A stretch of DNA of 64,000 nt from assembly GCF_021389955.1 (NCBI RefSeq), contig NZ_CP089980.1:557501-621500 (forward strand), given 5' to 3'. The position numbers and the translations under genes were made by a program. This document shows positions 33,036 to 51,843 of this stretch, piece after piece (within the stretch, counting starts at the first letter, position 1; every line of letters starts with the position of its first letter). Origin of the DNA: Fulvivirga maritima (lineage in GTDB: Bacteria > Bacteroidota > Bacteroidia > Cytophagales > Cyclobacteriaceae). The notes beneath the pieces are model-generated. The model searched no databases, was not told where the DNA came from, and saw only the letters and a program-made list of their open reading frames with translations.

Positions 33036-34936
33036 ATGTGTGGCATTACTGGTATTTACGCGTTTAACATGGTCGGACGAGTAAGCATGATTAATGTGGC
33101 TAAGGCCACTTCTGCTTTAGAAAAAAGAGGCCCTGATGTACAAAACACATATAATGATCATTCGGTAGCCTTAGGCCACAGAAGACTATCTATTATAGAC
33201 CCCACACCCGAAGGCCATCAACCCATGTATGATGAGTCGGGCAGGTATGTAATAGCCTTTAATGGTGAAATATTCAATTACAAGAGTCTTAAGGAAGAGC
33301 TGCAAGCTCAAGGCCATACTTTTTCGCTCACAGACTGACACTGAGGTACTGCTGCAGCTGTTTATCAAAGAAGGGAAAGAATGCCTTCAAAAACTCAATG
33401 GCTTCTTTTCTTTTGCCATCTGGGACACTCAAGACAAGTCTTTATTTATAGCCAGAGACCGAATTGGTATAAAGCCACTCTACTATATGATGGATAATGA
33501 CAGGCTGCTTTTTGGTTCAGAAATGAAAGCCATAGAAGCTTATGGCATTGAAAAAGAATTAGATTACACTTCACTCAACACTTACCTGCAGCTTAACTAC
33601 ATACCTGCCCCCAGAACCATATTTAAGTCAGTAAAAAAGCTGATGCCCGGTCATTACATTGAGGTTACCCCAGAACGCTTTTATATAAAAGCCTACTATG
33701 ATATACCTACACCAGACAAAAATAATAGCACTAAAAGCTATGAAGAACAAAAAACTGAGCTAAGCCAACTTCTGGAAGGTTCAGTGCAAAAAAGACTTAT
33801 GGCTGATGTTCCGCTAGGTTCCTTTCTCAGTGGCGGTATTGACTCATCAGTAGTAGCTACTCTGGCTGCAAGACACAAACCCGATCTGCATACTTTTTCT
33901 ATAGGCTATAAAGATGAAAAATTCTTTGATGAATCTGACTATGCCCGGCTAGTTGCCAAGAAAATAGGTACGGATCACACGGTTTTCTCACTCACTAATC
34001 AGCAGATGTATGCACACTTGCATGACATACTTGACTATATGGATGAGCCCTTTGCAGACAGCTCTGCCATTGCGGTGTATGTACTCTCTCAGGAAACCAG
34101 AAAGCATGCTACAGTAGCTCTTTCTGGAGATGGAGCCGATGAGCTATTTGCCGGATATAATAAACATGCCGCTTTCTTTAAGATTATTGAAGGTGGGCAA
34201 AAAGCGGAATGGGTTAAAAACCTTGGCCCCGTTTGGGGATTGATGCCCAAGTCAAGAAACAACAAGCTCACCAATCTTTTCAGGCAATTACACAGATTCA
34301 GTGAAGGCATGAAGCTTAACAGTCGGGAAAGATACTGGCGATGGGCTGGCTTTGCGACTGAAAACCAGGTCAGTAAATTATTAACTCCTGAAAGCCGGCA
34401 GAAAATAGATCAGGAAGAGTATTTAACCTTTAAAAATAGCATTCTTCAGCATTTACCAGACCAAGAGTCTATCAATGACATTTTATATACAGATGTAAAA
34501 TTAGTTTTACCAGACGACATGCTGACCAAAGTAGACCGCATGTCTATGGCAAATAGCCTGGAGGTGAGAGTGCCTTTCCTCGATCATGAAGTGGTAGAGT
34601 TTGCCTTCAGCATCCCTCCTTCTTCCAAAATCAATAAAGACATTCGTAAGCGAATACTTCAGGATACTTTTAAGGGTATTTTACCAGAAGAGCTGTATAA
34701 CAGGCCCAAAAAAGGGATTTGAAGTACCGCTTTCTAAGTGGCTCCGTACCGATATGAAATCAATGATTACCGATGATTTGCTAAACGATAAGTTTATTGC
34801 CGATCAAGGTGTTTTTGATGTAAAAGCCATAAAATCATTAAAAAAGCAACTGTTTTCCAGCAACCCGGGAGACGCACATGCCCGGGTTTGGTCAATTATT
34901 GTATTTCAATGGTGGTGGAAAAGGTATATGGCCTAA
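33036..34936 (+). CDS. asnB: Glutamine-dependent asparagine synthetase, broken by two frameshifts
   Basis: Ntn-glutaminase with Cys2 (MCGITG) releases ammonia that the synthetase domain adds to aspartyl-AMP. As given, the gene is in three frames. Removing one T from T5 at 33320-33324 restores GHTFRSQTDTEVLLQ; removing one base from the A6G3 run at 34708-34716 restores RPKKGFEVPLSKWL. The result is 632 residues, the usual length. PP-loop LSGGIDSSVVA and LSGDGADELFAGY are intact. Both faults are single extra bases in homopolymers. Starts six bases after the histidine kinase. Convergent with the OmpA gene. Confidence 0.9.
34708..34716 (+). other. Second indel site in asnB (A6G3)
   Basis: One A or G too many for the synthetase frame. 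The C-terminal 70 residues are fully conserved in the shifted frame (FEVPLSKWLRTDMK, DAHARVWSIIVFQWWWKRY). Confidence 0.75.
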
Positions 34937-41438: not shown

Positions 41439-42494
41439 TCACTTTTTTAGCAGGATGAAGCCGTGCTGCTTCCCTTCGCAATTGTTATATAACAATATAT
41501 GCTTAAATTCTTTTTTGCCCGCATTTTTCCATAGACAAATATCAGGCAATGCACTTCCTGTTATCAACATAGCTGCAATCCACAAAGAAAAGGCTGGCAC
41601 CGAATAATAATCACCTGAAAGGTGCTTATAAACATATAAATTCTGCTCTTTAAACAAATGCTTTTCTACGTGATCATAAAACCTGTCTGCCACCACATCT
41701 CCATTTCTGCCCAGCACTAAAGCATCAAGGTCATTAACATCGAGATGATTTCTGCTCAAAAACTGTTTTATCTTATCCTCAACCATAACCTCATCTACAT
41801 GCTGAATGGAGTCTACATCCACCACCTCGGCTATACTTCTATCACTTCGGTTAGCTTCAGCCACAAACATGGTTACCCCTTCACCAGGCAACGTACCTTG
41901 AGTGCCTGACTTCAGCAGATGTTCCGTGGAGATCTCCTCCTTTTTAAAAAGATTCCTTTGAGATTCTATATTGTAGTTACTCGAAGACTGTTCTTCACCC
42001 CCTCCAATTAATAATGCTTTGCAGTTGCCTTCTTCCAGCAACATTTTGGCGTCTAACACTGAAGATTCAAAGCACAACCCTTGGTTTACATGCGTAGTAT
42101 TATAACCTCTCTTCTTGCCCATTAAGGCCAGCATACCCGCTACACAATTAGGCGTAGACTGCACAAAATCAGTTGGTGTGAGTGTTCCTTCGTTATAATC
42201 TATGATTTGATTTAAAAAGCGCAATGAATGGTCTACACTTCCATTTGACGAAGCAAATATTACGGCATCTACATCGTTATTCTGCTCCATTAGCGGCATA
42301 CCTGTAGCTACGCTCATGCGCACTAACTTGCTCATTCTGCGCAGCAGCCCCATAGGAATAATGCCTTTGTAGCTAGGCTCATTGGCCAGCAACTGAGGAT
42401 CATTATAGAATTTTACACCTTCCGTGAACAGAGCTCCATAATAAGTCTCCTGAGGTGAAATGCATGACATATCCCGGATAAACATACTACTCAA
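41439..42494 (-). CDS. Ketosynthase-like protein, probable chain-length-factor type
   Basis: 351 residues of thiolase fold. The segment NQGLCFESSVLDAKMLLEEG followed by LLIGGGEE aligns with the KS nucleophile elbow, but the expected Cys position (counted from the GG of IGGGEE) falls on Gly or Gln and not on the nearby Cys. The paired KS histidines are also absent (LGRNGDVV and KHLSGDYYSVP take their places). This suggests a non-catalytic partner of the adjacent FabF-type enzyme, overlapping it by four bases (ATGA). Needs a structural alignment to confirm. Confidence 0.75.
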   Translation of the reverse strand: MSSMFIRDMSCISPQETYYGALFTEGVKFYNDPQLLANEPSYKGIIPMGLLRRMSKLVRMSVATGMPLMEQNNDVDAVIFASSNGSVDHSLRFLNQIIDYNEGTLTPTDFVQSTPNCVAGMLALMGKKRGYNTTHVNQGLCFESSVLDAKMLLEEGNCKALLIGGGEEQSSSNYNIESQRNLFKKEEISTEHLLKSGTQGTLPGEGVTMFVAEANRSDRSIAEVVDVDSIQHVDEVMVEDKIKQFLSRNHLDVNDLDALVLGRNGDVVADRFYDHVEKHLFKEQNLYVYKHLSGDYYSVPAFSLWIAAMLITGSALPDICLWKNAGKKEFKHILLYNNCEGKQHGFILLKK

Positions 42495-43688
42495 ACTTTA
42501 GAAAATATTAATGAAGAACAATTACCGCCAAATCCAAATGAATTAGAAAGGACATGATCTACTGCTTGCCTTTGCTCATACTTCATTACCGGAACTAAAC
42601 CATACTCTGCTATTGGTTTAGCACAATGAAGACTGGGATACAACTCTTTATTATTCAAGACCAGCAAGCTAAAAACAGCCTCTATGGCTCCTGCTGCGCC
42701 AAGTGTATGACCAGTATAGGTTTTGGTGGATTGAAAGGCGGGCACTTTACCTGCAAAAACTTTATTCATACCGGTTTGCTCGGTAATATCATTATTGGGA
42801 GTGCCAGTGCCATGCGCGTTAATGTAGTCAATTTTCTCAGGCGATAAGCCAGATACTTGCAAGGCGTTGGATATTGAAGCCACTACGCCAAAGGCTTCAT
42901 CTGAAATGGAAGACGGATGAAAAGCATCATTAGCATTACCATAGCCAGCCACCTCGCCATACACTCTTTTATCACCTGCCAGCTCTTCAGATTCAAGAAT
43001 AAGATAAGCGGCTCCCTCTCCAAGATTCAATCCTACCCGATCTTCATCAAAAGGCTTACTCTCTTCTTGCGATAAAATCTGCAATGAATTAAATCCATTT
43101 ACTGTAAACTTGGCCAGAGCATCGGCACCACCTACTATGGCTCTGTTGGCTCTGCCTGACTTTATGAGCTTGGCGCCAAACATAATGGAATTAGCCGATG
43201 AAGAACAGGCCGTATTAAAAGTAGTAGAAGCACCTTTAATCTTTAACCTTCTGGCAATATTGCTAGTATGCTCCCCTACATTATACGAAGCCAAAAACTG
43301 TGATGGGGGGCCTATTAAGTGAGCATCTTCATATAACTGATCGGTTCGTGACATACCTCCCACTGTACTGGCAGAAATAAAGGCTGTTTTAAAGTCCTGT
43401 ACCTGTTCTGAGGAAAGCCTTGCATCAGCAATAGCCTGAATTACGGCATAAGAAGCCAGGGCTTCTGTTCTGGATATACCCTCCTCATTAATCTGACACC
43501 TGCCCAGTAGTTCATCAGTAGAAATGGGCACCTCCCCCGAAAGGAAACACCTCAGTATAGCGCGTCTTTAAGATACTGGCCTTTTTCACTCCACTGATCC
43601 CATGCCTCAGGTTCTCCCTGTTTTCGTCCATATTACTTCCTATGGCAGAGATAATACCTATACCAGTAATAAAAACACGCTTACTCAT
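42491..43688 (-). CDS. FabF-type beta-ketoacyl-ACP synthase, broken by a frameshift
   Basis: From ATG 43688 (SKRVFITGIGIISAIGSN) the frame closes after about 55 codons; removing one base from the C5 run at 43534-43538 restores 398 residues reading VFPFGEVPISTDELLG. Catalytic triad intact: Cys in NTACSSSANS, His in INAHGTGTPNND, His in YTGHTLGAAG. It condenses ACP-bound units for the cluster product with the ACP upstream and the KS-like partner downstream. The fault is a single extra base in a homopolymer. Confidence 0.9.
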
Positions 43689-43696
43689 AAATTAAC

Positions 43697-43966
43697 TTAT
43701 GCTTTTTGGTTTTCGGTTATAAAATCAGCTAGCTGACCTACGCTACCCATAATTTTTTTACCCTGCTTAGAATCTGTGATCTTAAGACCATACTCTCTTT
43801 CTAACAGCACACTCAGCTCTATGGCATCAATAGAATCTAATGCAATATTGCTATCAGGTCCAAATAATGGTTCATCAGCTTCGATATCTTCTGGCTGCAT
43901 ATCCATTAAATTAAGATACTCAATGATCTGCTTTTTTAATTTTAAAATAAGTTCTTCACTAGCCAT
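43697..43966 (-). CDS. Acyl carrier protein
   Basis: 89-residue carrier. Phosphopantetheine site S45 in IALDSIDAIEL. An unusual GPDSNIALDS loop replaces the common shorter loop, as in carriers of resorcinol and aryl-polyene clusters. Eight bases precede the ketosynthase start. It is expected to carry the growing chain and hand it to DarB or to the BtrH-like enzyme. Confidence 0.92.
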   Translation of the reverse strand: MASEELILKLKKQIIEYLNLMDMQPEDIEADEPLFGPDSNIALDSIDAIELSVLLEREYGLKITDSKQGKKIMGSVGQLADFITENQKA

Positions 43967-43999
43967 AGTTATGCTATTAAAATAAAAATTGATATTAAA

Positions 44000-45277
44000 T
44001 TAAACTATTCTATTCTTCTTCAATTGAAAGAAGGTAATTACAAAACAAACTAAACAAAAAATAAACAGCCCCAGCAAATCGGACCAAAGTGCCTGCCAGT
44101 TTCCTCCTTTTAGAAATAAAGTGTAAAAACATTCCAGGCACCAATATAATGGAGAGCCATGACTTATAACTTGCATGTATTCTGGCATAACAAAACTGGG
44201 CACCAGCACCCCGCCAATAGCGGCAAAAATAACAATAGCCACCGCCCCAAAGCCATTGGCCTGCTCCTGTGTTCTTGCTGACATACCCACGGCAGCCGAA
44301 AAACTGATAGCCGAAAGCCCTGTCATAATAACTACGACAAGGCAAGCCAATAAATTATCAGGAAGTACTAACTCCGGCAACCCAAGTGATGGAAAAGTAA
44401 ATCTTGCCAGAGAGAAGATAACTGATACCTGAAGTATAACCGCCAAAAGGTATATAAAAAGCTTTGCCCATAGCACCAGTGTGAAATTGGTAGGCATAGT
44501 CTTTAGTCTCATAAAGCTACCGTTCAACCGCTCCTTTACCAGATTATTACCCATAGGGATCACCATAAAAAATATAGCAAAAATGGTCCATGCGGGTACA
44601 TTATGCTGGGTAGAGTTAGGCGCTAATTCATTTTCAGAAAGGGTAGCTGCATACTGTTCTATGGTTACCTGGTTAGAAGTAAGCGCCTTTTCCAGCCGTT
44701 CTGGAGCCTTATCTAATTGTAATTGCGCTGATATTTCTTTTATTAACAAGTCGCCTTCTATACTTTTTACAAAGGCATTGACCACATTAATAATAGAAGA
44801 GCTGAAATTTTCTTGCAACACAGGATCATGATAAAATAAGAGCGAAGGCATATTTAACTCTGTAGAAGCCTGAGATTCTGCTTTTACCTCTAGCTCTTCC
44901 AGCATGATATCACTCACTAAGCGAGATTTTTGGGTAAGCTTATCAGAAAAATCAACAGGAATAATTAAACCTGCTATTTGACTTTCTGCATTCATGGCCT
45001 GTTTAATATTATCTTTACTGAGGCTATCACGCTCAGTAATAGTGAAAAAGCGTGACTCATCAAGCAGCTTCACTAGCCGCTGTCCTTGCTCGCCGGTATC
45101 TTTATTGGCTACTATTAGCGTAACCTTGTTTTCATTAACTATTTGAAAAGCACTATCCTGAATGATGGTAATAATAAAAACCAGCAGCACAGGCATGAAA
45201 AACATGAGTGCCAATCCTGTTTTATCATTCCACAAGATCAGAAGTTCCTTCTTACAAGCTATCCAAAATCTAAACAT
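44000..45277 (-). CDS. ABC-2 type transporter permease
   Basis: 425 residues. TM1 near 20-40 (ALMFFMPVLLVFIITIIQ), a large extracytoplasmic domain (about 45-225), then five further TM segments ending in the ABC-2 fold (AISFSAAVGMSARTQEQANG, IGGVLVPSFVMPEYMQ). This is the DrrB/YhhJ-like layout used for lipids and natural products. Ends 34 bases before the ACP. With the next gene it forms an exporter for the cluster product. Confidence 0.88.
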   Translation of the reverse strand: MFRFWIACKKELLILWNDKTGLALMFFMPVLLVFIITIIQDSAFQIVNENKVTLIVANKDTGEQGQRLVKLLDESRFFTITERDSLSKDNIKQAMNAESQIAGLIIPVDFSDKLTQKSRLVSDIMLEELEVKAESQASTELNMPSLLFYHDPVLQENFSSSIINVVNAFVKSIEGDLLIKEISAQLQLDKAPERLEKALTSNQVTIEQYAATLSENELAPNSTQHNVPAWTIFAIFFMVIPMGNNLVKERLNGSFMRLKTMPTNFTLVLWAKLFIYLLAVILQVSVIFSLARFTFPSLGLPELVLPDNLLACLVVVIMTGLSAISFSAAVGMSARTQEQANGFGAVAIVIFAAIGGVLVPSFVMPEYMQVISHGSPLYWCLECFYTLFLKGGNWQALWSDLLGLFIFCLVCFVITFFQLKKNRIV

Positions 45278-45279
45278 AG

Positions 45280-46020
45280 TTAATCCCTGTACGACTCCCC
45301 TGTTAAGTTAATGAGTAATCCTTTTAAGTCTACTTCGTGCTCTTGCAGCAGATGCTGAGTATTGCCTTTAATAATGATTTCTCCATGATCTATGAGTGCC
45401 ACTCTATTACAAAACTCTTCCGCTTCATCAAGGTGATGAGATGTGTAAATAATGGTAGCACCTTCTTCGTTGAGGTGCTCCAGAAGTTTTATAATGGCCA
45501 TTTTACTCTGCACATCTACTCCCACGGTGGGTTCATCTAAAAAGATAACTGCCGGCTGGTGTATAATGCCAATTGCCAGATTCATACGCCTTTTCATACC
45601 TCCTGAAAAAACGCCTACCTTCTTATTCTTCACCTCACTAAGCCCTAGTATATTGAGAATATCCAATGACCGGGATTTTATTTCTGCTCTTGACAGTTTG
45701 TACATAGCCCCGAAATATTCGAGGTTTTGCATAGGAGAGAGCTCTCCATAAAAGGCATATTCCTGAGGCACGAAGCCCAGTTGCTGTTTTACTTCTATTT
45801 TATTGATCTCACTATCACCCCAATAGTAAAAATGCCCGGAAGAGGGCTCTTGCAGACCACATAATATAGATATTAGCGTGGTTTTACCCGCTCCATTTGG
45901 CCCAAGTATACCGTACCGATCTCCCTTAGCTATAGTCAAATCTATGCCTTTCAGGGTGTCTTCTGTCTGCCCCGGGTATCGCTTAGTAATGCGCTCTATA
46001 GTTATGCAACTGTCTGCCAT
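45280..46020 (-). CDS. ABC transporter ATP-binding protein
   Basis: 246 residues, one nucleotide-binding domain. Walker A GPNGAGKTTL, Q-loop FVPQEYAFYGEL, signature FSGGMKRRMNL, Walker B VIFLDEPTVGVD and H-loop TSHHLDE. Three bases separate it from the permease gene. Powers export of the cluster product; the direction is inferred from the ABC-2 type. Confidence 0.93.
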   Translation of the reverse strand: MADSCITIERITKRYPGQTEDTLKGIDLTIAKGDRYGILGPNGAGKTTLISILCGLQEPSSGHFYYWGDSEINKIEVKQQLGFVPQEYAFYGELSPMQNLEYFGAMYKLSRAEIKSRSLDILNILGLSEVKNKKVGVFSGGMKRRMNLAIGIIHQPAVIFLDEPTVGVDVQSKMAIIKLLEHLNEEGATIIYTSHHLDEAEEFCNRVALIDHGEIIIKGNTQHLLQEHEVDLKGLLINLTGESYRD

Positions 46021-46023
46021 AAA

Positions 46024-47061
46024 CTACAAACGAAGCTTACGTAATTCTTTGAAAGTTTTTAATTCTAGCGCAGAGATTTCTGACATGGCATCAGCTACTT
46101 CATCAAAGTTTTGCTGTGCAGTGGCTCTGCCTTTTATAATACTAGCCATGCGCACAGCATTATATCTTAGCAAGTCACCTGATTTAGTCATTTCTTCTGA
46201 AAAGCGAATGAGCTCATCTTTGCCTAATATCTCAGCGGCCTGCTCTAAAAAGGCAGCATATATAAAACGGAAGCCTCCACCGCCGGTTCCTATCTCCTCT
46301 TGCATACGCACAATCTGAGCCAGATACAAGGCTGCTCTACGCTCACCCAGCTGATCTCTCCACTTCCTTATTTTCTTGGCAGTGTAATTAAAGCCACTAG
46401 CCCCTACTTGCTCCATAGGCACTTGCGTCATCCACCAGGTAGTTTTTTTAATTCCTTTTTTAATGGCCTTTTTAAGCTTGGCTTCGTCTATTTCTCCCAC
46501 ATTTATGGGGTAGTACATTTGTCCGTTAGGCGCTAATGGTCCTCTGGCGAAGCGTACCTCATCTAACTGCTCAGGGGTGAGCTTAGTAAGTGTTTCCATA
46601 ACAGGATCACTCACTATGTAATGGCCATCTTCAAAGCCATGCACAATGATATTATGCGCATTAAAATGGAAACGGTATTCTCTGGGGAAATAAGGCAGAT
46701 GAAAAACCCCTACCTGACATCCTACAGGATCACCATCTTCCAATTTTTTATCTAGATAAGCCCTGGCCGTAACTGGAGATCTGAATTTTTTTCTGGAAAC
46801 TTTTACCCCCAGCGCCTTACAGGTATCTCTAAAAATATAGCCCGGCATAATTCTAAAAGCTATCGCGGGAGCATTATTCACCTTTAAAAAAGGGAGATGT
46901 ACATAAAACATACCGGCTCCGATACCGAAAGCCAGCGGCTCATTCATAAAATCAACTCCATGATGCCTTAGTAATGTAGTAACTACTCCATTCTCACAGT
47001 GAGCAGTTTGTATATGTTTTATGTTATTTTCTGATGTATTTGTCAATATTCCCTCCATCAA
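46024..47061 (-). CDS. BtrH-like ACP-dependent acyltransferase (BtrH_N + DUF4872)
   Basis: 345 residues. The BtrH N-terminal domain shows a possible papain-like set: C22 (TAHCENG), H136 (FNAHNIIVHG) and D152 (IVSDP). The C-terminal part is DUF4872-like. In butirosin synthesis BtrH moves an acyl group from an ACP to an amine, so here it could take the chain from the cluster ACP to an amine or hydroxyl. That is inference from the family. It overlaps the neighbouring 141-residue gene by 38 bases and precedes the ABC exporter. Confidence 0.82.
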   Translation of the reverse strand: MMEGILTNTSENNIKHIQTAHCENGVVTTLLRHHGVDFMNEPLAFGIGAGMFYVHLPFLKVNNAPAIAFRIMPGYIFRDTCKALGVKVSRKKFRSPVTARAYLDKKLEDGDPVGCQVGVFHLPYFPREYRFHFNAHNIIVHGFEDGHYIVSDPVMETLTKLTPEQLDEVRFARGPLAPNGQMYYPINVGEIDEAKLKKAIKKGIKKTTWWMTQVPMEQVGASGFNYTAKKIRKWRDQLGERRAALYLAQIVRMQEEIGTGGGGFRFIYAAFLEQAAEILGKDELIRFSEEMTKSGDLLRYNAVRMASIIKGRATAQQNFDEVADAMSEISALELKTFKELRKLRL

Positions 47062-47449
47062 ATCTTTTCAATTCTTCCACTGAGATTTTGAATGCAGCAG
47101 CATATTTCCCCAGCTTTTTATCACTCAGCTTTTTAAACACAGAAGGTTTTATATGTCTTTTTATAGTCCACTTCCAAAATCCGGTATATCCAGATAAGGT
47201 AGGGTAATCCATGATGTTTACTTCCATAAAAAACAGCACCGGGCTTTTCTTCCCAGACTTCACCTCCTCTGCAGCTTCTCTTACCCTGTCATTAATATCT
47301 GCCCAGGCTTCATCTAAAGCATCAGCCTTTACCTTCCAGCCAGTACTCAGGCTCTGCCCGTATTTACCGTCATCATCTTTAACATAGCACACCTCTCTGG
47401 TAACATCTCTCAGTGCTGACGAATCTTGTGGAAGGTCTTCTTTTTTCAT
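47024..47449 (-). CDS. Small conserved cluster protein of unknown function
   Basis: 141 residues, soluble. Polar start with many Asp/Lys, then a tryptophan-containing core (YTGFWKWTIKRHIKPSVF) and a helical tail. No recognised catalytic motif. Its place between DarB and the BtrH-like gene, with overlap on the latter, suggests a partner of one of them. Confidence 0.65.
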   Translation of the reverse strand: MKKEDLPQDSSALRDVTREVCYVKDDDGKYGQSLSTGWKVKADALDEAWADINDRVREAAEEVKSGKKSPVLFFMEVNIMDYPTLSGYTGFWKWTIKRHIKPSVFKKLSDKKLGKYAAAFKISVEELKRFDGGNIDKYIRK

Positions 47450-47460
47450 AGCAAATTATA

Positions 47461-48606
47461 TTAACAAACAGTTAACCAGGCGTATACATACGAAAACCTG
47501 GAACTCTCCGGTACCATTAATAATAGTTTATCGCCCTCTTTTAGTTTCCCACTGTTAAACAATTCTTCTACCATAAGGTAAATAGAACCTGAACCTACAT
47601 TACCTTTAGTAGCCAAGTTAGTAAACCATTTTTCTTCAGGGATGCTCAGTCCATCAGCAGCTAAAACATCTGCTATTTGCTGTTTAAAGAAATAGCTAGA
47701 CATATGAGGAAGGAAATAATCTACCTCTTCAATATTTATATTATGCTTTTTAAGTGATGTTAAAAGCAGCTCATTACCTAATTTAACAATATTATCACCC
47801 AAAAGCTTCACATCCTGCTTTATGCTCATTAATGATTTATTAATAAGGTCAGCAGGTTCATAATCTTTATACGATTGAAAATCTCCATTTTCTAATCTAT
47901 CGCCGCCCATATACATGCATGGCTCTATTTTATGCGCGAATGAGCAGGCTTCCATCCAATCTATTCTAAGGGAAAGGCCTTCTTTACTTTTCTCTGTCTC
48001 CAGTAAAAATGCTCCGGCACCATCAGATAGCATCCATCTTAAAAAGTCCTTCTCAAATCCGATGTAAGGGTTTTCTTCCAACTCCTGCATCTTCTGAATT
48101 TCTTCTTCATACTTATCAGCAGTCATGGCTATGGCTATTCTCTCTGATCCACTGGTTACCGCTTTGCTCTTATCTCCTAGTTTGAGAGACATATAGGCAT
48201 ATTTTAAAGCGTGCATTCCTGAGCAACATACTCCTGATGGAGATACCACTTCTATATTACTGGTCTCTGGCAAGCAGCCATGCACCATTACAGCATGTGA
48301 AGGCATGATCTGATCCGGGCTTGAAGTACCACAGCTCAAAAGCTCTATTGTAGTAATTTCATCCGGATCATTTTTAAACAATCCCCTAATGGCATTGGCC
48401 ACCATTTCAGCATTTGTATGGGTAGATTTACCTTCTTTATTTACGGCATAGTACCGCTCTTTGATACCATTCCTTCTTAAGATTATCTCTTTAGATCGAG
48501 ATTTTTTTCCATTAATGTACCCCAGGTACTCTTCCAAGTCTGCATTATAAACCGGGTCATTTGGAAGAAAAGCAGAAGCCCTGGTGATAAAAACATCTTT
48601 TAACAT
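47461..48606 (-). CDS. darB: DarB: beta-ketoacyl-ACP synthase III-type enzyme of dialkylresorcinol synthesis
   Basis: 381 residues, KAS III fold. Nucleophile C128 in SGVCCSGMHALKY; His in FLPHMSSYFFKQQ; Asn in TKGNVGSGSIYL. In DAR synthesis DarB couples two beta-keto fatty acyl chains to give a cyclohexanedione, which DarA aromatises. ATG at 48606 is favoured (a TTG one codon upstream is possible). Together with DarA in the same operon this fixes the cluster type. Confidence 0.9.
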   Translation of the reverse strand: MLKDVFITRASAFLPNDPVYNADLEEYLGYINGKKSRSKEIILRRNGIKERYYAVNKEGKSTHTNAEMVANAIRGLFKNDPDEITTIELLSCGTSSPDQIMPSHAVMVHGCLPETSNIEVVSPSGVCCSGMHALKYAYMSLKLGDKSKAVTSGSERIAIAMTADKYEEEIQKMQELEENPYIGFEKDFLRWMLSDGAGAFLLETEKSKEGLSLRIDWMEACSFAHKIEPCMYMGGDRLENGDFQSYKDYEPADLINKSLMSIKQDVKLLGDNIVKLGNELLLTSLKKHNINIEEVDYFLPHMSSYFFKQQIADVLAADGLSIPEEKWFTNLATKGNVGSGSIYLMVEELFNSGKLKEGDKLLLMVPESSRFSYVYAWLTVC

Positions 48607-48753
48607 CAAAAAAATATTTAGGGGATTTAACCAATTGTTGTATTCGTAAAACTATCTCTTTTTTTCATTAATCAGATCAAAAAATAACCTTTTCATCAAT
48701 ATCTAAAAATGAGAAATCTGTAATATGCTAATGATTATCAATATATTAATCTT

Positions 48754-50443
48754 TTATTTAGCTACTACTGACTCTAGCCATATGACTGAAAGCGCTTCTC
48801 TGATTATGGGTGTGGCAGGAATAGCTGACGAACCATTACTTTGATTCATTAGCTCATTTTTTCCTGATTTTAAAGACATCATATATGGATCTACAGCCAT
48901 ATCTTCTGGAGTTCCTAATAGCTGATGACTCACTACCCTAAAAAGCTCTGCCGCCATTTGCTCCAGCAAAGAAAGGTTTTTTTCTAGTTTCATAAGCAAT
49001 TCTTTATCCGAAGGGTAAATTTCTTCAATACCTTTCTGTAGATCATTCATAAACGGTACAGACATAGGGTCTAGATATATTTCTTTAATCTCTTTGTTCT
49101 CCATCCGGCCCCAGTCTAAATAGAAGTCTTGTACATTTCTATTTAGCTTACCGAGTCGCTCTCCGAAACTGTTTTTGGTAGTAAATAATTCTTTGAGAAC
49201 ATTCATATTTACAAAGGCTTTATTTGTAAACACTAATGAGGGCACACTCCAGTAGAAAGCAAAATCCCACGTGATTTTAGCAGCCATCACTTGAGTATTA
49301 CCAAAGAGCTCGTATTTCTGAAAATAAATAGGAATCCAGTTTTGAAATAGCCGTGCATGCACCTGATCATACACTTTAGTGCGCGTATAAACATCTTCTC
49401 CCTGATAATCTCTCAATATCAGGTCGGCTGTCCAGCAGTTACTCATGGAGATAAAATCAGTGCCAGGAGAGTAAAAAGGATCTAAAAAAGCGCCTGATTC
49501 GCCCACTACAGCCCATTTATCAGTAGAATAGAAGAGCTGCGAGTCATAGGAAAATTTTTTCAACACTTTAAAATCCAACACATCATCTAACCTACCTTCC
49601 AGCTGATTAGCACATTGGGGTTCGTTCTGCTTAAGCCACTCAAAGGCCTTTTCTAATTTATTAAAACAGGCAAAATCATGAAATCGAGGGTCTGCCACTA
49701 TACCTATGCTGGTATTACCTGATGACAATGGAATAAGCCAAACCCAATAGCCTTTGCTCATTAAATGAACTGTACTCAACCTTCTTAGTCCGGGAGCAAC
49801 ATAATTAATCCATTGCGGATTAACTGACCAATCTGAAATATCTACTTCGCCTTTAATCCTAAACCAGGCAGCGTTAATATGATGCTCTATTTCCTTACCT
49901 AAGCCGAGCTTTCTTTTCAAAAAGCTAGCTCTTCCGGTAGCATCTACCACCCAGCTGGCCATTATGGTATGCAAATCTTCTCCTTGCTGATAAGTTACTG
50001 TGTGGCAATCTTCTGATATATCTACCTCTTTAACCGTGCTGTTCATGATCACATGAACGCCGAGGTTGGAGATCATACCTATCAGATCATTTTCAAAAAT
50101 GCCTCTATCAATCTGATGACTGGGCACAAAAAGCTTATTTACTGCACCGAATTCCATCCGCCTGTCTATGGAATTACTCTCATTTGGTGAGATAAAAAAA
50201 CCTCAACCCATGCTTATACAGATGTGTTTTATCCAAGTAATCTTTAAGACCAAGCTCCTCTCTTAGATAGTACGTGCCCAGCTCTACCGTTGATTCTCCT
50301 ACCTTATGGGCTGCATCAGGAGCCGTGTCGGCCCTACGCTCCAGCAAAGCTACATTTAACCTTGGTTCACTCTTCTTCAGCTGCATGGCGAGCGTTAAGC
50401 CAGCCATGCCACCACCCATAATAATCACATCGAAATCAGGCAT
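48754..50443 (-). CDS. FAD-dependent halogenase-like monooxygenase, broken by a frameshift
   Basis: As given, two frames; removing one base from the A7 run at 50194-50200 restores 562 residues reading LRFFISPNESNSIDRR. FAD motif GGGMAGLTLAM; KVGEST near the substrate Lys; the halogenase signature WVWLIP (W-x-W-x-I-P) and DPFYSPG (Fx.Px.SxG). Predicted to chlorinate or brominate the phenolic ring, consistent with known chlorinated flexirubins. It follows darA by 7 bases. The regioselectivity and halide cannot be predicted. ATG 50443 is favoured over an upstream TTG. Confidence 0.88.
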
Positions 50444-50450
50444 CAGCAAT

Positions 50451-51359
50451 CTATCTTTTTATCCCAAGATATAAATAATGCTGTTTATTTCTTCTAATTT
50501 TTAAAAACATTAAGGGTCTTAGCAAGGTAAATATCACTAAAACAGGAGGAGAAACTACAAAAAGAGCAATTATAAGATACCATTTGAACCTATTTACCCA
50601 TACTGCTCTTTTTTCAGGATTAGTACCTTTTTTTCTTATTAGGTTAGCCCAAATGTTAAATAGCATTTTTCCTCTGGACTCTACCAGCATAAGCGCAGCT
50701 GACACTTTTATGCCCCCTTTTTGCAATATTTTTCTCTGTAAGCCTAAATAGTCACAGTGATTAATGGCCTCTGCCACCGGCTCTCCATATTGACGTGCGG
50801 CCTTAATATCTTCATCACTTACCCCTGGTAAAGGCAGAAATCCCCATTTGCGTGTTTTCTCACCTGTAAGCAGCCAGTGTAAAATAGTGAGGGCACTGAT
50901 ATGATTTTGAGCTCTGTCTATCAGGGGCACATTACCTACCATATAACCTCCTGCTGCATTTACCTCTCTTACTATGCTTTTCTGAGACTGAAGCCACATA
51001 TTTCTGGCTCCTATTACAGTAACTACAGGAGTATCTTTAAGCACTTTCCTGAATTTTTCATCCTGCAAAAGTGCCATGGCTGGTTGTGACGGGGAAAGAT
51101 ACCAGGGCTGGTATCCAAATATTATGAGTTGATATTCTTCTTTGGCTAGTGAATAAGGAGCCAGCTTACGCGGATGCTCCAATACCGTTTCAGGCATAGC
51201 ATCAAAAAAGGTAGGAGAAGTCCAGGGAAAGGGGAAATCATCTTCAGGTTTTACCTTAACCCTATCAATGTTCACCCCTTTAAATGGCAATAAAAAATTA
51301 TCTAAAATACTATCTAGCTGGCCCGATTGGCTATAGCTGATAACAAGAATGTTCTTCAT
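50451..51359 (-). CDS. darA: DarA: dialkylresorcinol-condensing/aromatising enzyme
   Basis: 302 residues. N-terminal flavodoxin-like segment (NILVISYSQSGQLDSILDNF), LIIFGYQPWYLSPSQPAM and VVTVIGARNMWL, ending in hydrophobic segments (LIIALFVVSPPVLVIFTLL) that should anchor it to the membrane. In DAR synthesis DarA oxidises the DarB product to the aromatic resorcinol. First biosynthetic gene of the operon, immediately before the halogenase. Confidence 0.9.
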   Translation of the reverse strand: MKNILVISYSQSGQLDSILDNFLLPFKGVNIDRVKVKPEDDFPFPWTSPTFFDAMPETVLEHPRKLAPYSLAKEEYQLIIFGYQPWYLSPSQPAMALLQDEKFRKVLKDTPVVTVIGARNMWLQSQKSIVREVNAAGGYMVGNVPLIDRAQNHISALTILHWLLTGEKTRKWGFLPLPGVSDEDIKAARQYGEPVAEAINHCDYLGLQRKILQKGGIKVSAALMLVESRGKMLFNIWANLIRKKGTNPEKRAVWVNRFKWYLIIALFVVSPPVLVIFTLLRPLMFLKIRRNKQHYLYLGIKR

Positions 51360-51378
51360 AAGAGTAATAAAAATTACC

Positions 51379-51843
51379 CTAATCTATCAAATCTTCCGCT
51401 TTTAACACAGTAGAATGTGACACATAATCCTTGATGTAATTTTTCAGATCTTTATCCAGCTCAGGATAGCTCTTTAGAATCAATGCTTTATCTTCTTCTA
51501 TTTCATTATTATAGTTGAGAATTTTAGGGGCATGCTCCTGTATGGTTAACCTCAAAAATCTATATTCCACATTAGCATTTTGACTATCAATAGCGTCTTC
51601 AAGCAGTTCATGACCTTCTTTAAAAAGCTCCAATTTATTAGCTGGTCCTTTTACCAAGCCGGCCTTGGTCATAAGTAGGGTTCCTTTATAAGCTTTTATA
51701 TCTGTTTCATCTCCTTGTAAAGATGACAGTGCATGCTCTATTTTATCTAAAGATCCATCGTTAAGCGCATTAAACACTACCGCTCTGCTACTGGCAAAGA
51801 AAAAAAGACTGGTTAAGAATATACTTGATATTATTTTCATCAT
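51379..51843 (-). CDS. Exported protein upstream of darA
   Basis: 154 residues with an N-terminal signal (MKIISSIFLTSLFFFASS). The mature part is helical with a TPR-like spacing (GTLLMTKAGLVKGPANKLEL). It starts the operon 19 bases before darA. Function unknown; a periplasmic factor for pigment or lipid handling is possible. Confidence 0.6.
   Translation of the reverse strand: MMKIISSIFLTSLFFFASSRAVVFNALNDGSLDKIEHALSSLQGDETDIKAYKGTLLMTKAGLVKGPANKLELFKEGHELLEDAIDSQNANVEYRFLRLTIQEHAPKILNYNNEIEEDKALILKSYPELDKDLKNYIKDYVSHSTVLKAEDLID

What the first reader, a model, noticed from the sequence alone, without database searches (positions are those of the whole stretch)
41439..51843. Compact dialkylresorcinol-type cluster with a halogenase, a BtrH-like acyltransferase and its own exporter
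Nine or ten minus-strand genes with short or overlapping junctions: exported protein, darA, halogenase, darB, small protein, BtrH-like protein, ABC ATPase and permease, ACP, FabF-type KS, KS-like partner. The DarA/DarB pair identifies resorcinol chemistry. Unlike full flexirubin loci, no tyrosine/histidine ammonia-lyase, ketoreductase or dehydratase of an aryl polyene is present. A halogenated, possibly N- or O-acylated and exported resorcinol is a reasonable prediction that I cannot name from known compounds.
Basis: partly seen in the sequence, partly recalled or inferred. Interest (0 to 1): 0.78.

Follow-up and report, generated by a model that had tools for sequence, protein, structure and literature searches.

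The report
Resorcinol half of flexirubin pigment genes
This gene cluster makes one half (the resorcinol) of flexirubin, a known yellow-orange bacterial pigment; the genes for the other half sit elsewhere in the same chromosome, so the cluster is largely ordinary apart from an extra halogenase-like gene and a close relative that has lost nearly all of the cluster and is reported to lack the pigment.

Summary
The gene set is real: exported protein, darA, halogenase-like gene, darB, darG, darH (BtrH-like), ABC ATPase and permease, ACP, KS and an inactive KS partner. It is not a stand-alone halogenated-resorcinol pathway. The missing polyene genes, including curated FlxA, FlxY and LolA2, form a flexirubin cluster 1.9 Mb away. 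Chromosome length equals that of Fulvivirga maritima SW1-E11T, reported KOH-positive for flexirubin. The operon order is that of the published Azoarcus dar operon. DarH occurs in 18 of 247 phylum genomes, each with FlxA. In ten Fulvivirga strains of one paper, dar presence matches the KOH test in all ten, whereas five KOH-negative strains carry FlxA. The closest relative, probably F. sediminis (KOH-negative), keeps the polyene genes but only scraps of the dar operon. Unusual: a halogenase-like gene between darA and darB, rare in the phylum sample and frame-broken here, perhaps by assembly error. Its activity and target are untested. New member of a known kind.

The parts
51379..51843 (-). small exported protein (154 aa), first gene of the operon
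   Evidence: kept in G004 67%, G010 51%, L013 46%, L014 43%; only a sub-threshold Pfam match; export signal judged by eye
50451..51359 (-). darA, DAR aromatase/condensing enzyme, flavodoxin/WrbA-like fold with a long C-terminal helix
   Evidence: (74% to G004 copy), alignment, model pLDDT 90.4, Foldseek mostly WrbA/flavodoxins; role from PMC3949708 Table 1
50180..50449 (-). halogenase-like flavoprotein, N-terminal piece (GGGMAG motif, KHG lysine)
   Evidence: intact 566- and 563-aa copies in G004 and G010
48754..50157 (-). halogenase-like flavoprotein, remaining piece in another frame (WVWLIP, FLDPFYSPG motifs)
47461..48609 (-). darB, DAR cyclase / ketosynthase III-like
   Evidence: NF053539 610.7 bits, cut-off 550
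47024..47449 (-). darG, small conserved protein of DAR operons; predicted helical C-terminal domain resembling XRE/SinR HTH folds (weak)
   Evidence: NF053545 187.2 bits, cut-off 170
46024..47061 (-). darH, BtrH-like acyltransferase (BtrH_N + DUF4872)
   Evidence: NF053550 440.9 bits, cut-off 300; PF14399, PF16169
45280..46020 (-). ABC transporter ATPase (DrrA-like)
44000..45277 (-). ABC-2 type permease
43697..43966 (-). acyl carrier protein
   Evidence: PF00550
42491..43688 (-). FabF-type ketosynthase; ORF 42491-43531 plus an N-terminal stretch in another frame up to 43688
   Evidence: Cys-His-His active site kept
41439..42494 (-). KS-like partner (chain-length-factor type; catalytic Cys and His positions replaced)
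   Evidence: PF13723, alignment

Best explanation
The operon is the dialkylresorcinol (DAR) and assembly half of a two-locus flexirubin pathway. DarB condenses two fatty-acid intermediates and DarA aromatises the product to a 2,5-dialkylresorcinol (published for homologues; inferred here). The flx cluster 1.9 Mb away makes the 4-hydroxyphenyl-polyene acid from tyrosine via FlxA and FlxY. DarH, related to the BtrH acyltransferase, most likely moves the polyene acyl group from an ACP to the resorcinol to form the flexirubin ester (inferred). The ACP, KS and inactive KS partner supply or finish an acyl chain, and the ABC pair moves the pigment or its resorcinol half across the inner membrane (inferred). 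The halogenase-like gene is an addition seen at this place only in this genus; it probably halogenates the resorcinol or the finished pigment (inferred, and frame-broken in this assembly).
For: Curated DarB, DarG and DarH models over cut-off. FlxA, FlxY and LolA2_flexi over cut-off at the second locus, beside ketoreductase, KS, thioesterase, FabZ-like and exporter genes. DarH over cut-off in 18 of 247 phylum genomes (0 of 14 control genomes) and FlxA in 20 of 247; all 18 are among the 20 and the two genes lie within 25 kb in 16 of the 18. In L015 the dar operon sits between FlxA (62%) and FlxY (52%) homologues. Order equals darA-B-D-E-F-I-C-J-K of Azoarcus, leaving aside two toxin-antitoxin-like genes there. 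Genome length 6,392,613 bp equals CP089980, F. maritima SW1-E11T, reported KOH-positive. Ten Fulvivirga strains of that paper: the two with the operon (G000, G004) are KOH-positive; the eight without a DarH match are negative, though five of those carry FlxA at 69% identity or more. Nearest relative G006 keeps the flx genes at 76-96% identity, FlxY included, but has only fragments of darA, KS and CLF; F. sediminis, its probable identity, tested KOH-negative.
Against: No chemistry was done here. KS and halogenase-like gene are frame-broken as read, and SW1-E11T colonies are only pale yellow. DarH as ester-forming enzyme rests on BtrH kinship and co-occurrence; the C. pinensis authors proposed a ligase-like FlxW instead. 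FlxA is not specific to flexirubin makers: it was over cut-off in one of 14 control genomes (Bacteroides ihuae) and in two phylum genomes without DarH. Ten related strains are not independent (1 in 45 by label shuffling). Strain names are exact by length only for G000 and G004; the other eight are matched by rounded size. Of the seven negative reference strains, I saw only F. sediminis named as retested by the paper; SS9-22T is the paper's own isolate.
Confidence: 0.93

Rival explanations
1. One reading: a stand-alone cluster for a halogenated, acylated and exported resorcinol, unrelated to an aryl polyene.
For: Locally there are no polyene genes, and the operon carries its own ABC pair and a halogenase-like gene. 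DarA and DarB of C. pinensis alone give a free DAR on heterologous expression (PMC3992019 passage).
Against: Flx cluster in the same genome; DarH found only with FlxA in the phylum sample; dar presence tracks the KOH pigment test.
Confidence: 0.04
2. The operon is decaying: the halogenase-like gene and KS are true pseudogenes, as in the sister species where only a scar remains. (Not exclusive of the best explanation.)
For: Two frame breaks in about 10 kb; scar in G006; pale yellow colonies; the published assembly used Nanopore plus Illumina reads, which should leave few errors.
Against: Other genes in this assembly also carry breaks: 4 in 24,382 aligned aa outside the operon, giving P of about 0.11 for two or more here; FabH is broken too. 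The four junctions inspected (FabH, flx KS, dar KS, halogenase) lie at homopolymers of 5-7 bases; three further window breaks were not inspected. Operon genes keep 67-90% identity to G004, and the strain is reported KOH-positive.
Confidence: 0.2
3. The dar-linked flavoprotein does not halogenate but acts as a flavin monooxygenase or reductase on the pigment. (Not exclusive of the best explanation.)
For: It also matches LodB, QhpG and geranylgeranyl-reductase-type models, all below cut-off, as is its best model, CmlS; its best PDB match by sequence is named only flavoprotein/dehydrogenase (3nix).
Against: Next PDB matches include PltA, ChlB4 and CmlS; Trp_halogenase is its best Pfam family, over cut-off; WxWxIP, KHG lysine and FxxPxxSxG motifs are kept (motif meaning recalled).
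Confidence: 0.3

Closest known systems
dar operon of Azoarcus sp. BH72 (arcuflavin), azo0283-0293 (PMC3949708, section 18 read)
   Same: darA, darB, small conserved protein, BtrH-like protein, ABC ATPase, ABC permease, ACP, KS, hypothetical last gene, in the same locus-tag order; locus tags apart from the polyene loci
   Different: Azoarcus has two toxin-antitoxin-like genes (prevent-host-death, PilT) in the operon and no halogenase listed there (its halogenase arcA is in a polyene locus); it uses a XanB2-type enzyme making hydroxybenzoates instead of a tyrosine ammonia-lyase; its pigment shows no colour shift with alkali
Chitinophaga pinensis flexirubin loci flxA-Y and darAB (PMC3992019, passages read)
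   Same: tyrosine-derived polyene cluster and a separate dar locus
   Different: the C. pinensis dar neighbourhood was not inspected here; the main text has no occurrence of halogenase
Flavobacterium johnsoniae flexirubin cluster (as described in PMC3992019)
   Same: same pathway
   Different: dar and flx genes lie together in one 37-kb cluster
FAD-dependent halogenases PltA / ChlB4 / CmlS
   Same: sequence similarity over the flavin core and kept motifs
   Different: low similarity, longer than PltA and ChlB4, substrate unknown

Membership tests
flexirubin biosynthesis (flx + dar) | DarB of the curated dialkylresorcinol family | tested here: met
   610.7 bits, cut-off 550
flexirubin biosynthesis (flx + dar) | flexirubin-type tyrosine ammonia-lyase FlxA in the genome | tested here: met
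   842.7 bits, cut-off 700, at G000:C1:2497672; the model also rings in one of 14 controls
flexirubin biosynthesis (flx + dar) | FlxY ligase and flexirubin LolA2 | tested here: met
   586.3/520 and 224.5/125 bits
flexirubin biosynthesis (flx + dar) | polyene KS and ketoreductase genes | tested here: met
   L011 ORFs; one flx KS is frame-broken in this assembly
flexirubin biosynthesis (flx + dar) | polyene dehydratase gene | tested here: inconclusive
   FabZ-like protein 36.2 bits against cut-off 155.15; a 156-aa ORF at L011:14378 has no Pfam match
flexirubin biosynthesis (flx + dar) | KOH-shifting aryl-polyene-DAR ester made | not testable with these tools
   published KOH-positive for SW1-E11T (PMC10113389); no pigment structure in the passages and sections read
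arcuflavin/flexirubin-type dar operon | order darA-darB-small-BtrH-ABC-ABC-ACP-KS-last gene | tested here: met
   against Table 1 of PMC3949708, by annotation and order; Azoarcus sequences were not compared
FAD-dependent halogenase | GxGxxG, WxWxIP, FxxPxxSxG and catalytic lysine motifs | tested here: met
   present across the two window pieces and in intact copies; motif list recalled
FAD-dependent halogenase | one intact reading frame in this genome | tested here: not met
   frame changes at about 50160-50200; intact copies in G004 and G010
FAD-dependent halogenase | halogenating activity | not tested
   needs an assay

The most novel reading that the evidence does not exclude
In Fulvivirga the dar operon is the on/off switch for flexirubin, and its extra halogenase chlorinates or brominates the resorcinol half. 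That would be a flexirubin halogenated where the text read here reports none (it describes chlorination at the polyene ring). F. sediminis would then be a natural dar knock-out showing that the polyene does not accumulate without its resorcinol partner.
Probability: 0.25. Interest if true: 0.45.

Novelty: new member of a known kind. Interest (0 to 1): 0.3.

Why it matters
It turns an apparently new resorcinol pathway into a named pigment pathway by looking outside the window. It also offers a natural experiment: two closely related species, one with and one nearly without the dar operon, both with the polyene cluster, and opposite published pigment tests. The halogenase-like gene inside the operon is a concrete lead to a halogen position not described in the papers seen here.

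Tried and rejected
Considered and rejected: (a) a stand-alone resorcinol pathway, because the flx cluster was found; (b) that the second ammonia-lyase gene (6024005) belongs to it: its neighbours are not polyene genes and it is only 34% identical to FlxA, so I take it for histidine ammonia-lyase (not tested against a curated model); (c) the long DarB-like proteins (617-658-aa open frames, 10 of 58 relatives) as replacement DAR genes: the one tested (L112) carries a C-terminal iron-redox-like match just under the Pfam cut-off (27.6 against 28.9), and the three Fulvivirga strains of the paper that have such a protein (G001, G008, G014) are KOH-negative. DarG fold search gave only weak HTH-like matches (none at E 0.001 or better), so no function is claimed. 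DarA sequence search of the PDB found nothing useful. One genome-contig scan with DarB returned 80 loci, many distant; 33 of the 80 were examined for gene content. Flexirubin with halogenase: 2 papers, of which passages and a section of one were read. Flexirubin with chlorinated and resorcinol: 1 paper, where 'chlorinated' is about aquimarin peptides. Fulvivirga sediminis with flexirubin: 1 paper, whose main text does not use the word resorcinol. So in these searches of the held library I found no print report linking dar loss to that strain's pigment test.
Full report
What is there. The minus-strand operon at 41439-51843 holds eleven genes: a small exported protein, darA, a halogenase-like flavoprotein, darB, darG, darH, an ABC ATPase, an ABC-2 permease, an ACP, a FabF-type KS and a KS-like partner. 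DarB, DarG and DarH exceed the curated NCBIfam cut-offs, and the DarG model is itself named 'flexirubin biosynthesis protein DarG'. The KS keeps its Cys-His-His set, whereas the partner has lost the catalytic Cys and His positions, as a chain-length-factor type subunit would. DarA has no convincing family match. Its model (pLDDT 90.4) finds mostly WrbA and flavodoxins in the PDB, at modest TM-scores (0.3-0.4 by query length); the first-ranked row is a receptor chain.

The rest of the pathway is in the genome. The window lies in a single 6,392,613-base contig. Of two aromatic ammonia-lyase genes, the one at 2497672 scores 842.7 bits against the FlxA model (cut-off 700). It is followed by a ketoreductase, KS, ACP, acyltransferase, thioesterase, KS, a second ACP, a second KS with KS-like partner, a polysaccharide-deacetylase-like protein, LolA2, a FabZ-like protein (below cut-off), a glycosyltransferase-like protein, a large RND-like exporter and FlxY.

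Co-occurrence. In an even draw of 247 genomes of the phylum, DarH is over cut-off in 18 and FlxA in 20. All 18 DarH genomes are among the 20; the chance is near 2e-25 if genomes were independent, which they are not. Controls: DarH rang in 0 of 14 named genomes, FlxA in 1 of 14 (Bacteroides ihuae), so FlxA alone does not mean flexirubin. The two genes lie 8.6-24 kb apart in 16 of 18; the other two are this genome (1.89 Mb) and G074 (186 kb). Among 58 relatives, DarH is over cut-off in four (G000, G004, G010, G029). All four have FlxA-like proteins at 55% identity or more, a group of eleven. In G004 and G029 the loci are about 490 and 285 kb apart, and in G010 on different contigs. [quoted passage not shown] C. 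pinensis has separate loci (PMC3992019, passages read). In the named locus L015 (Cyclobacteriaceae MAG) the dar operon lies between FlxA (62%) and FlxY (52%) homologues.

Same operon as arcuflavin. Table 1 of PMC3949708 lists, for Azoarcus, darA, darB, a small conserved protein (darD), a BtrH-like protein (darE), ABC ATPase (darF), two toxin-antitoxin-like genes (darG, darH), ABC permease (darI), ACP (darC), KS (darJ) and a hypothetical (darK). Apart from the two toxin-antitoxin-like genes there, and the halogenase-like gene and exported protein here, the order is the same. The published gene letters differ from the NCBIfam names used here. The whole set through the KS-like partner is also seen in L013, L014 and L015, the last with broken ABC frames; L016 carries it up to the KS near its contig end.

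Identity and phenotype. PMC10113389 (passages, then sections 5 and 9 read) lists a genome of exactly 6,392,613 bp, CP089980, F. maritima SW1-E11T, and one of exactly 6,523,894 bp, CP089979, F. ligni W9P-11T, the contig length of G004. Both are listed as positive for flexirubin-type pigment; the eight other Fulvivirga strains in the table are negative. By rounded size, and single-contig status for the two CP accessions among them, these eight fit G014, G006, G002, G005, G001, G008, G007 and G011. None of the eight has a DarH match; five (G014, G006, G002, G001, G008) carry a FlxA-like protein at 69% or more. So the dar operon, not the polyene cluster, predicts the test in ten of ten. The strains are related, and label shuffling alone gives 1 in 45. 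A separate paper on F. kasyanovii 48LL (PMC12565237, passages) reports an arylpolyene cluster matching flexirubin and a separate resorcinol cluster without a characterised counterpart. F. kasyanovii (type strain) is KOH-negative, and G001, which I match to it, has no DarH but does have a long DarB-like protein. I think that protein explains the published resorcinol call, but I did not test this; if it were a true DAR locus it would weaken the ten-of-ten match.

A natural deletion. G006, probably F. sediminis (84.3% ANI to SW1-E11T in the paper), is collinear on both sides of the operon. Between the flanks only fragments remain: darA residues 1-96, KS 239-346 and CLF 1-130 and 283-351. No tblastn match was found there to the halogenase, darB, darG, darH, the ABC genes or the ACP; the few weak hits of such queries (E above 0.1) lie elsewhere in the fetched stretch. 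Its flx genes are kept at 76-96% identity, FlxY (84%) included. The paper reports F. sediminis as negative in its own test. That makes it a candidate natural dar knock-out.

The halogenase-like gene. Intact copies of 566 and 563 aa lie at the same place in G004 and G010; the G029 operon lacks it. Relatives at about 45-48% identity lie divergently within about 1.2 kb of darB in L022, L023, L026 and L028, four of 33 loci examined out of 80 returned. At E of 1e-60 or better, only G000 itself of 247 phylum genomes had a match; in the rows shown that search scored at most five candidates per genome, and G000 is the only carrier known to me that I saw in its sample. The flx cluster has its own Trp_halogenase-family protein (L011:8273-9508), only about 21-25% identical. 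Known chlorination is described at the polyene ring (PMC3992019 passage), so the dar-linked enzyme is a candidate for the resorcinol side; this is inference. It also resembles flavin monooxygenases and reductases.

Frame breaks. In this assembly the halogenase-like gene and the KS are each in two frames. Outside the operon, comparison with G006 found 4 split proteins in 24,382 aligned aa (3 in the window, two of which may be one gene cut by my fetch boundary; 1 in L011; 0 in L012), and none of 46 G000 proteins was split in G006. FabH is also broken. The four junctions inspected all lie at homopolymers of 5-7 bases; the three other window breaks were not inspected. Expected breaks in the operon at that rate are 0.57, with P of two or more about 0.11. 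Assembly error is the likelier reading. Against it stand the Nanopore plus Illumina assembly and the pale yellow colonies.

Judgement. This is a flexirubin dar operon in a two-locus arrangement: a known kind, with an uncommon halogenase-like insertion and, as far as one search shows, an unreported loss in a sister species. Steps after DAR formation (DarH esterification, ABC export, role of ACP/KS/CLF and DarG) are inferred.

Noticed in passing
L131:7335-8533 (G006:C33): Scar of the dar operon in the nearest relative: fragments of darA, KS and CLF only, with the polyene cluster kept elsewhere.
   Followed up: yes
L111-L114 (G001, G008, G014, G027): A longer DarB-like protein (617-658 aa open frames in 10 of 58 relatives). 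The one tested, L112, has a C-terminal Haem_oxygenas_2-like match just under the Pfam cut-off and lies between a fatty acid hydroxylase and a DUF6999 protein; pathway unknown.
   Followed up: partly
window about 6534 and 33283-34716; L004:1380-1500; L011:15418-15431: Frame breaks in other genes of this assembly, FabH and a flx KS among them; those two lie at short homopolymers, the window ones were not inspected.
   Followed up: partly
window 47024-47449: DarG, conserved in DAR operons, is predicted to end in an XRE/SinR-like helical domain; weak matches only.
   Followed up: partly
L118:9196-10176 (G029): A second, distant DarH-like protein (182 bits, under cut-off) with no dar neighbours in 20 kb.
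   Followed up: partly
L011:8273-9508: Trp_halogenase-family protein divergent from flxA, a candidate for polyene-ring chlorination.
   Followed up: partly
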